64,000 nucleotides of DNA from Diabrotica undecimpunctata (Eukaryota > Arthropoda > Insecta > Coleoptera > Chrysomelidae): contig NC_092806.1 in assembly GCF_040954645.1 (NCBI RefSeq), positions 117,348,458-117,412,457 on the forward strand, given 5' to 3'. Below, piece by piece: positions 24,215 through 25,676 of the stretch (positions are counted from its first letter, which is position 1; each line of letters starts with the position of its first letter). Under the pieces are notes generated by a model. That model was not told the DNA's origin. It did no database searches and was given only the letters and a program-made list of their open reading frames with translations. The position numbers were made by a program, and so were the translations under genes.

Positions 24215-25122
24215 TGGAAATAAATATATCCTGGTAGCCATGGATTATTTTACGAAATGGACTGAGGCCTATGCAATACCAAATCAAGAAACTGCTACCG
24301 TTGCAGAGGTACTTGTTAAAGAATTCTTTAGCCGATTTGGTGTTCCCTTGGAGATCCACTCCGACCAAGGGCGAAACTTCGAGTCAACCCTTTTCCAAAA
24401 CGTTTGTAAATTGATTGGTGTCAATAAGACCAGAACGACACCCCTGCATCCTCAATCGGATGGAATGGTCGAGAGAATGAACCGAACAATGGGTAAACAC
24501 CTGTCCAAAGTTTTATCAGAACATCAAAGAGATTGGGACCAGCACATTCATTTATTCCTAATGGCCTACCGCTCGGCCGTGAATGAAACTACAGGCCAGA
24601 CTCCAACCTGCCTGATGTTAGGTCGTGAAGTTCGTTTACCCTGCGACCTAGAGTTTGGCTGCAGACCTTCCGAAGAACATGTTGCAAGCGAAGATTATGT
24701 CGACCGCCTGAAGTTAAGAATGAACAACATTCATGAACTTGCCCGACAACACATCCAGATAGCTAGTGACAGAATGAAAGATCAATATGATTCTCGATGC
24801 AAGAGTGAAAGCTATAAAGTAGGTGATCTTGTTCGGCTTTATAATCTACAACGTCGTCGAGGCTTGTCTCCCAAACTGCAAAGACAATGGGAAGGTCCGT
24901 ATGAAATTAAAAAAGGAAATAAATGACGTAATATACCGAATTAAGAAGTTGCCGAAAGGTAAACCAAAAGTAGTTCACATAAATCGTCTTGCACCATATG
25001 CTGGCTCAAATGAAACAGAAGAAGCACGAACCCTTCAACATGAGATCAAAGATGACCGCGACCAAGCTTTAATGAATTTATGTCAAATTACGCAGAGAGA
25101 AAGAGTGCTAGATTCGGCGTGA
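24180..25122 (+). pseudogene. Integrase of the LTR element, one frameshift
   Basis: Catalyses insertion of element cDNA. Visible features are the integrase core with DIAGPLPE (first Asp), VAMDYFTKWTEAYAIP, EIHSDQGRNFES (second Asp), TTPLHPQSDGMVERMNRT (Glu) and a C-terminal chromatin/DNA-binding part with RRGLSPKLQRQWEGPYEI. A frameshift near 24,915 separates this from the natural end (KVVHINRLAPYAGSN...), which closes at 25,122. The N-terminal zinc-binding HHCC part is missing because of the deletion at about 24,178. Ordering and the VHINRLAPY ending fit Ty3/gypsy elements. It overlaps the start of the macro-domain ORF by 43 bp. Confidence 0.85.
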
Positions 25123-25676
25123 CCACAGAAGTTCAGCAGGATCTTTTTAGTGTTCCGCATAACGTTTTTCTAGCCCACTGTGTTGCCCAAGATCTTGAGA
25201 TGACTAAACGAATCTCATCCGTATTTTATAAGAAATTCGGTCGTTTGGACGAGTTAAAAAACCAGCAGCCTATAGTTGGAAGAGTACTGAGATTAGAAGA
25301 TGGTTCTCGATCTTTGCTGTATATGGTGACCAGGAAGTCGTATACAGACAGGGCAAGCTACGAGGATATATAGCGTGCTCTAACTAATTTGAAGAAAATT
25401 GTGTGCAATTACGACATCAAGAATTTGGCCTTACCCAAGATAGGCCATGCACTAGATAATCTGGACTGGAAGATTGTCAGAAGCATGTTTGAAGTAATAT
25501 TCCGAGGAACCGGCGTACGAATTACTGTGTGTTGCATTAACCCGATGAGATCGTATCCTTCAAAGTCAGTAGACTGTTATTTCTTTCTAAAAGGTTCATG
25601 TAGAGCTGGAGAGTCCTGTAGATTCCGCCATCCTGTGCCTGCATATAGAGTTGCTGATCGGGACGATCAGATTTAA
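25080..25676 (+). pseudogene. OARD1/TARG1-like macro domain plus CCCH zinc finger, carried by the LTR element
   Basis: A 198-residue frame from ATG 25,080, interrupted by one TAG (25,371-25,373). Residues about 22-150 follow the layout of ADP-ribose glycohydrolase macro domains of the OARD1/TARG1 type: LAHCVAQDLEM, VFYKKFGRLDEL, QPIVGRVL, LLYMVTRKSYTDRASYEDI, then LALPKIGHALDNLDWKIV and GVRITVCCI. From family knowledge the Asp in GxxLDxLxW is catalytic and is kept. The glycine-rich substrate loop after the first helix (GAGIA-like in the family) reads TKRISS, so ligand binding may be altered. The C-terminus has CYFFLKGSCRAGESCRFRH, a C-x8-C-x5-C-x3-H zinc finger of the RNA-binding kind. It lies between integrase and the 3' LTR, where env or accessory genes sit. 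The name rests on my motif reading, not a search. Confidence 0.75.

What the first reader, a model, noticed from the sequence alone, without database searches (positions are those of the whole stretch)
25080..25676. LTR retrotransposon carrying an OARD1/TARG1-like macro domain fused to a CCCH zinc finger
Seen: between integrase and the 3' LTR, inside LTRs and matching GTAT target duplications, a 198-codon frame has macro-domain landmarks (LAHCVAQDLEM, FGRLDEL, LALPKIGHALDNLDW) followed by CYFFLKGSCRAGESCRFRH. Known: OARD1/TARG1 macro domains remove ADP-ribose from proteins; viral macro domains counter host PARP antiviral activity; CCCH fingers bind RNA. Inference: a retroelement has captured a host-type ADP-ribose hydrolase and joined it to an RNA-binding finger, possibly to blunt PARP- or ADP-ribosylation-based defence or to modify its own gag/RNP. 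It sits where env or accessory genes lie, starts in a different frame overlapping the integrase end by 43 bp, and keeps the GxxLDxLxW aspartate while the Gly-rich loop has changed. It is interrupted by one TAG here.
Basis: partly seen in the sequence, partly recalled or inferred. Interest (0 to 1): 0.88.

Follow-up and report, generated by a model that had tools for sequence, protein, structure and literature searches.

The report
Beetle retrotransposon polymerase with ADP-ribose-binding tail
A large, recently active family of beetle jumping genes carries a host-type ADP-ribose-handling domain and a zinc finger fused to the end of its integrase, which suggests that it interacts with the host's ADP-ribose signalling; the copy in this window is a dead, shortened member.

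The parts
22902..22905 (.). 5' target-site duplication GTAT
   Evidence: sequence
22906..23155 (+). 5' LTR (TGTTAC...CTACA)
   Evidence: alignment to the 3' LTR, 7 mismatches in 252 aligned bases and two indels
23156..23175 (+). primer-binding-site region (assigned by position only; no tRNA match tested)
   Evidence: directly after the 5' LTR; similar bases follow the 5' LTR in the ten other copies
23396..24170 (+). truncated gag remnant with 18-residue coiled-coil-like repeats
   Evidence: frame 23396-24214, DUF1759 9e-7, 54-nt tandem repeat 23525-23710; the first 80 bases of the query 24090-24220 match gag of other copies
24169..24170 (+). approximate internal deletion junction (gag to integrase; protease, RT and RNase H missing)
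   Evidence: only the window copy matches across it, 1 of 40 scored matches
24171..24926 (+). integrase core and start of the C-terminal part
   Evidence: rve 3.9e-15
24823..25122 (+). integrase C-terminal part, continued in another frame (frameshifted in this copy)
   Evidence: Integrase_p58_C 7.1e-9; one frame with what follows in other copies
25122..25532 (+). TARG1/OARD1-type macro domain, interrupted by TAG at 25371-25373
   Evidence: models and fold searches of relatives; P0001 matches 25080-25529 at 82%
25575..25631 (+). CCCH zinc finger C-x7-C-x5-C-x3-H
   Evidence: Pfam zf-CCCH 2.8e-6; CPSF4 fingers in the PDB
25674..25676 (+). TAA that ends the frame, as in other Diabrotica copies
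25677..25687 (+). polypurine-tract-like stretch directly before the 3' LTR
25688..25979 (+). 3' LTR
25980..25983 (.). 3' target-site duplication GTAT

Best explanation
Shown: a Ty3/gypsy-type LTR retrotransposon lineage of beetles has a Pol polyprotein whose integrase is extended in frame by a TARG1/OARD1-type macro domain and a CCCH zinc finger, ending at the polypurine tract and 3' LTR. The module is inherited with the element, with one origin among the sequences sampled, and its macro part shows purifying selection in Diabrotica. Inferred: the module stays attached to, or is cleaved next to, integrase and travels with the particle and cDNA-integrase complex. There the macro domain removes (most lineages) or only binds (Diabrotica, catalytic Lys to Arg) ADP-ribose that host PARPs put on integrase, on the ends of element RNA or cDNA, or on chromatin at the target site, while the CCCH finger holds element or nascent host RNA. 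The gain for the element would be escape from PARP-linked repression, or a better hold on the target site. Likelihood of the architecture: about 0.97. Likelihood that the ADP-ribose pocket is used, as eraser or reader, at the integrase/cDNA/chromatin step: about 0.45.
Against: No activity, binding or expression was measured. In Diabrotica, the window's own host, Lys84 is Arg in 87 of 87 copies and in 5 of 5 database proteins, and Gly123 is Ala in 86 and Val in 1 of 87, so lysine-based hydrolysis is probably lost there, and binding is not shown. The CCCH part was not modelled with confidence (residues 161-289 of P0009 under pLDDT 50), and purifying selection on the CCCH tail was not shown: shared 0.47 against private 0.41, p 1.0 in 86 copies; 7 N to 1 S shared in 35 copies. 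An amplified derivative keeps macro-CCCH joined to Gag while lacking the integrase core, which fits an RNA or particle role as well as an integration role. The PARP-1 link is weak: of eight significant mobile elements five went up and three down, nine of ten further upward ones are gypsy-superfamily but not significant after correction, and the authors allow an indirect effect.
Confidence: 0.45

Rival explanations
1. The module is an integrase targeting tether. Like a chromodomain at the integrase C-terminus, the macro domain reads ADP-ribosylated chromatin and steers integration; hydrolysis is incidental.
For: Same place as the chromodomain of chromoviruses, the C-terminus of integrase (PMC3605345, start of abstract in the listing). 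Diabrotica lost the catalytic Lys but keeps Gly43 (87 of 87) and selection on the domain.
Against: The catalytic Lys and Asp are kept in 51 of 52 and 47 of 48 non-Diabrotica element proteins, more than a pure reader needs. Target sites were not surveyed here.
Confidence: 0.2
2. The module is an RNA-handling or packaging tail. The CCCH finger and the RNA-binding face of a TARG1-like fold hold element RNA; the ADP-ribose pocket matters little.
For: The CCCH spacing is present in 37 of 129 proteins (many of the rest are fragments or cellular). TARG1 binds RNA independently of ADP-ribose (PMC5928194, passages). An amplified derivative (11 of 150 rows have frames of 921 codons; four derivative loci examined) keeps Gag, integrase zinc finger and C-terminus, macro and CCCH but lacks protease, RT, most of RNase H and the integrase core. 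Diabrotica has lost the catalytic Lys.
Against: Strong conservation of pocket and catalytic residues outside Diabrotica; no selection shown on the CCCH tail itself.
Confidence: 0.25
3. Passenger: the module was captured once and is carried because it does no harm.
For: Long Diabrotica branch (0.61 changes per column) and change at active-site positions; no selection shown on the CCCH tail.
Against: Shared variants in the macro domain are depleted in amino-acid changes. The module is kept in frame, with the active site intact, in many other beetles.
Confidence: 0.07
4. One-off insertion of a host exon or gene into this one element copy.
For: None beyond the window itself.
Against: 40 of 40 integrase-selected loci have the macro region; 150 of 150 scored matches cover the whole second piece.
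Confidence: 0.01

Closest known systems
TARG1/OARD1/C6orf130 (ALC1-like macrodomain ADP-ribose hydrolase)
   Different: Fused behind integrase and before a CCCH finger in a retrotransposon polyprotein; loop residues 41-42 are mostly Ser-Arg instead of Gly-Ala; in Diabrotica Lys84 is Arg and Gly123 nearly always Ala.
Macro-domain ORFs of epsilon-like endogenous retroviruses of ray-finned fish (Basta et al. 2009, cited in PMC4977317)
   Same: Retroelements that carry a macro domain as an extra coding part (one passage of the review).
   Different: Vertebrate retroviruses, additional open reading frames. The original paper was not held, so macro class, position and fusion could not be compared; here it is a Ty3/gypsy-type element of beetles with the macro domain in frame with integrase and a CCCH finger.
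Chromoviruses (Ty3/gypsy with chromodomain at the integrase C-terminus)
   Same: A chromatin- or modification-related domain attached to the integrase C-terminus (PMC3605345, start of abstract in the listing).
   Different: No chromodomain found by Pfam in the relatives scanned; a macro domain and a CCCH finger instead.
Alphavirus macrodomains (counter host ADP-ribosylation)
   Same: A mobile genetic agent that carries a macro domain in its polyprotein (function recalled; structures).
CPSF4/CPSF30-type CCCH fingers
   Same: C-x7-C-x5-C-x3-H spacing and sequence.
   Different: A single finger here, five matched in CPSF4 (alignment).

Membership tests
Ty3/gypsy-type LTR retrotransposon | LTRs TG...CA with short target duplication | tested here: met
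   window and ten other copies, 4-bp duplications read from the flanks printed
Ty3/gypsy-type LTR retrotransposon | Pol order protease, RT, RNase H, integrase | tested here: met
   protease, RT, RNase H by Pfam in one copy's frame, integrase of the same copy; integrase and C-terminus elsewhere; the window copy itself lacks protease, RT and RNase H
Ty3/gypsy-type LTR retrotransposon | RT phylogeny inside Ty3/gypsy | not tested
   no RT tree was built; the assignment rests on domain order, the integrase C-terminal domain and a weak Ty3_capsid match of gag (0.005)
TARG1/OARD1 macro domain hydrolase | macro fold closest to TARG1 | tested here: met
   P0009; P0001
TARG1/OARD1 macro domain hydrolase | catalytic Lys84 in non-Diabrotica beetle elements | tested here: met
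   51 of 52 filled rows of 58 (one Arg, P0116); 21 of 21 in the thinned set
TARG1/OARD1 macro domain hydrolase | catalytic Lys84 in Diabrotica elements, the window family | tested here: not met
   Arg in 87 of 87 copies and in 5 of 5 database proteins that reach it
TARG1/OARD1 macro domain hydrolase | acidic residue 125 of the dyad | tested here: met
   outside Diabrotica Asp in 47 of 48 filled rows, one Glu (a motif scan also reads Glu in P0065, a gap in that alignment); Asp 85, Glu 1, Asn 1 of 87 copies; five Diabrotica database proteins have Glu 4, Val 1
TARG1/OARD1 macro domain hydrolase | hydrolysis of ADP-ribosyl esters | not testable with these tools
   needs an enzyme assay
CCCH zinc finger | Cys/His spacing and profile match | tested here: met
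   above the curated cut-off; Cys/His kept in 85-87 of 87 copies (copies were picked through a landmark at the finger)
CCCH zinc finger | zinc and RNA binding | not testable with these tools
   needs a binding assay; the finger was not confidently modelled
Chromovirus | chromodomain at the integrase C-terminus | tested here: inconclusive
   no Pfam chromodomain hit at E 0.01 in the relatives scanned; a very diverged one is not excluded
Macro-bearing fish endogenous retroviruses | homologous macro class and slot | not tested
   original paper not held; no fish sequence was compared

The most novel reading that the evidence does not exclude
A retrotransposon lineage has made ADP-ribose handling a built-in part of its integrase: an integrase-macro-CCCH fusion that strips or reads PARP-made ADP-ribose on the incoming cDNA, on integrase or on target chromatin. 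It has persisted across beetle families, and in Diabrotica it switched from eraser to reader.
Probability: 0.35. Interest if true: 0.87.

Novelty: new variant of a known kind. Interest (0 to 1): 0.73.

Why it matters
Insects lack most of the antiviral PARPs of vertebrates (recalled), so a conserved ADP-ribose eraser inside a beetle retroelement would point to an ADP-ribose-based check on transposons that is not yet described, or to a new way for integrase to choose or prepare its target. There are many natural copies (5,012 first-look candidates in this genome), a natural Lys-to-Arg switch and Gag-macro-CCCH derivatives, so eraser, reader and RNA-binder hypotheses can be told apart with purified domains and PARP knock-downs.

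Tried and rejected
One-off host insertion: rejected. Separate accessory ORF in an overlapping frame: rejected. Finding relatives in viral contigs: the alignment query was not conserved enough, and the single-protein query gave one pattern match and no confirmed relative. A second divergent element family in the same genome: query P0034 returned only rows of 48-51% identity (150 scored of 5,598 candidates); the six of them that I read belong to the main Diabrotica lineage. First selection counts used ungapped tails; one search was spoilt by a one-codon indel and one frameshifted copy (L073) and gave ratios from about 0.5 to 1. They were replaced by the codon alignment: 95 loci given, 2 (L077, L089) had no frame with the finger landmark, 93 aligned, 6 dropped (L025, L053, L058, L069, L080, L122), and L073 dropped too. 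First tree: 105 rows, the display failed; 73 rows, the element group needed 2 changes because P0072, a Callosobruchus fragment, was labelled 'other'; one search relabelled it and left out three long rows (P0124, P0119, P0026). A scan for a wrong finger spacing (C-x8) found none and was a mistake of mine; the spacing is C-x7. Literature: (PMC open-licence library only; listings and abstracts, not all papers opened) showed no paper describing a macro domain in a Ty3/gypsy element or an integrase-macro-CCCH fusion; the nearest is the fish retrovirus remark. PMC8195603 was opened at passages and concerns other domains.

Full report
What was checked. The window frames 25056-25373 and 25374-25676 lie in one phase and are split by one TAG. 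Searched apart, piece 1 matches human OARD1/C6orf130 at E 4e-13. Piece 2 matches OARD1 at 2e-5 over residues 7-53 and CPSF4-type CCCH fingers at about 1e-8, a value that sums several fingers of CPSF4. Pfam gives zf-CCCH above the curated cut-off but no Macro hit. The LTRs are 22906-23155 and 25688-25979 with GTAT on both sides; they differ at 7 of 252 aligned bases plus two indels.

Host. The homologous protein P0001 is named Diabrotica undecimpunctata and lies on a contig of 145,884,717 bases. Contig C8 of the window's own assembly has exactly that length. The assembly has 1.743 Gb. D. undecimpunctata is reported with about 0.19 Gb of Gypsy sequence (PMC8982398, passages).

The window copy is dead and shortened. 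gag runs into integrase near 24170, so protease, RT and RNase H are missing. Among 40 scored matches to the junction (2,348 candidates) only the window itself crosses it. The integrase C-terminal part continues in another frame (24823-25122) and the macro part starts in the first frame again. Other copies show why. In L002, L003, L004 and L006, in 37 of 40 copies picked through the second piece and in 33 of 40 picked through integrase only, integrase C-terminus, macro domain and CCCH finger form one uninterrupted frame, then TAA, the polypurine stretch and the LTR. The 'overlapping different-frame ORF' is therefore decay, not design.

Family in the genome. The second piece gave 5,012 first-look candidates; 150 were scored and all 150 cover it fully without an inner stop (these are the best-scoring ones, so the sample is biased to intact copies). 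Of the 150 rows, 35 lie in open frames of exactly 1,414 codons, 5 in frames of 1,857 and 11 in frames of 921 (my count of that listing). In one 1,414-codon copy the first half holds protease, RT and RNase H, the integrase lies further on and the macro-CCCH end closes the frame (L017), so the order is PR-RT-RNase H-IN-macro-CCCH. All 40 integrase-selected loci have the macro region downstream. These 40 were taken by eye from the 148 integrase matches (148 scored of 18,019 candidates), leaving out those already listed by macro searches; 7 of the 40 are broken somewhere between integrase and finger. Ten copies with 1,414-codon frames have LTR pairs with 0 mismatches in six (one of these with a gap), 1 in three and 4 in one, and 4-bp target duplications: the family moved recently. 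Several LTR types carry the same module.

Other beetles. Two further protein searches gave 27 and 114 hits (in one search only the 7,995 candidates sharing most words were scored). Named sources with the element form are Aromia, Exocentrus, Molorchus, Gonioctena, Leptinotarsa, Callosobruchus, Acanthoscelides, Diabrotica, Brassicogethes (its finger lacks the first Cys), Pyrocoelia and, by similarity only, Aquatica. All are beetles (their families are recalled, only Diabrotica was looked up). Several element proteins come from unnamed contigs, so a restriction to beetles is not shown. Among 129 proteins, 42 hold an integrase C-terminal landmark, 37 a C-x7-C-x5-C-x3-H finger and 21 both, and all 21 have the order integrase, macro, CCCH. 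In 27 the finger is followed by a short tail ending in a ...QC signature. In window terms this is what the polypurine stretch and the first LTR codon would encode (inference), so the slot before the 3' LTR is probably shared. Those frames would run through the polypurine tract; the Diabrotica copies stop just before it.

Origin. A tree of 70 macro domains puts all 32 element sequences on one side of a branch with support 100/99. The Diabrotica sequences sit on a branch of 0.61 changes per column (100/100). P0072 was relabelled as an element sequence before this run because it is a Callosobruchus fragment inside the group; three long rows were left out. The genome also holds a different macro gene (L049, 760-codon frame without integrase or CCCH, the only row well above the element copies); its place is unresolved. 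One capture by the element lineage is the simplest reading among the sequences sampled; the donor is not identified.

Selection. In the codon alignment, variants shared by two or more copies (taken as those that existed in transposing ancestors) are depleted in amino-acid changes in the macro domain: pN/pS 0.26 against 0.67 for private variants, p 0.0067, 86 copies; with integrase-selected copies only 0.18 against 0.74, p 0.021, 35 copies (same result). The integrase end shows 0.44 against 0.82, p 0.07 in 86 copies, and no contrast in the 35 (0.81 against 0.64, p 1.0). The CCCH tail shows none (0.47 against 0.41, p 1.0; 7 N to 1 S shared in the smaller set, p 0.29). Copies are not independent, so these p values are guides. 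The finger's own Cys and His are kept in 85-87 of 87, but the copies were picked through a landmark at the finger.

A second surprise. Four loci (three in 921-codon frames, L126, L127, L129; one in a related frame listed as 892 or, with one TAG, 932, L128) share the same integrase-core deletion and also lack protease, RT and most of RNase H, all in frame. The remaining protein reads Gag, integrase zinc finger, integrase C-terminal domain, macro, CCCH. They are 98.6-99.6% alike over about 1.8 kb, so this is an amplified non-autonomous lineage. It kept Gag and macro-CCCH, which favours a role of the module in the particle or on the RNA as much as at integration.

Mechanism. I commit to a Pol-tethered ADP-ribose-handling module that works at the integrase/cDNA/chromatin step, eraser in most beetles and binder in Diabrotica, at about 0.45. 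Shown steps: architecture, fold, residues, selection on the macro part, recent spread. Inferred steps: activity, substrate, benefit. The motive is only indirect: in Drosophila without PARP-1 five of eight significantly changed mobile elements went up, and nine of ten further upward ones are gypsy-superfamily elements but not significant after correction (PMC7712786, passages); TARG1 works on proteins and nucleic-acid ends. The RNA-handling rival (0.25) and the tether rival (0.2) are open.

Novelty. Macro-domain ORFs in fish endogenous retroviruses are in print (PMC4977317, one passage; original not held) and chromodomains at integrase ends are a known kind (listing). I found no report of a macro domain, or of macro plus CCCH, fused to a Ty3/gypsy integrase (searches; open-licence library only). 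Hence: new variant of a known kind.

Noticed in passing
G000:C2:106013588-106015387, C2:168571862-168573661, C2:74924306-74926105, C1:151554832-151556631 (L126-L129): Amplified non-autonomous derivative: a 921-codon frame (three of four loci) Gag - integrase zinc finger - integrase C-terminal domain - macro - CCCH, lacking protease, RT and integrase core.
   Followed up: partly
L049 (G000:C3:100934197-100934628): A different OARD1-like macro domain near the end of a 760-codon frame with a long low-complexity N-terminal part, no integrase or CCCH; probably a host gene.
   Followed up: partly
protein P0027 (170 aa, 1,580-base contig): A TARG1-like macro start preceded by a stretch that resembles the end of a retroelement RNase H (NVLPDFLSR); possibly a second kind of element with a macro domain (resemblance is from memory, Pfam silent).
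   Followed up: no
proteins P0071, P0079, P0128: Longer proteins of unnamed organisms with a TARG1-like macro domain behind low-complexity or coiled-coil regions, no element features seen.
   Followed up: no
window 23525-23710: 54-base (18-residue) tandem repeat in gag, coiled-coil-like.
   Followed up: no
window 19121-20346, minus strand: Broken frames that look like a tyrosine-recombinase-type (Crypton-like) protein (GHSLRRTSATLL...LKRHG), resemblance from memory.
   Followed up: no
window 17151-17984: Tandem array with a 239-base unit, 3.5 copies.
   Followed up: no
window 11256-13394 (-), 50742-53144 (-), 58690-61254 (+): Long non-LTR retrotransposon-type RT frames (by eye).
   Followed up: no
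window 62897-63346, minus strand: Frame that looks like a DPH4/DNAJC24-type J-domain plus zinc protein, probably a host exon (by eye).
   Followed up: no
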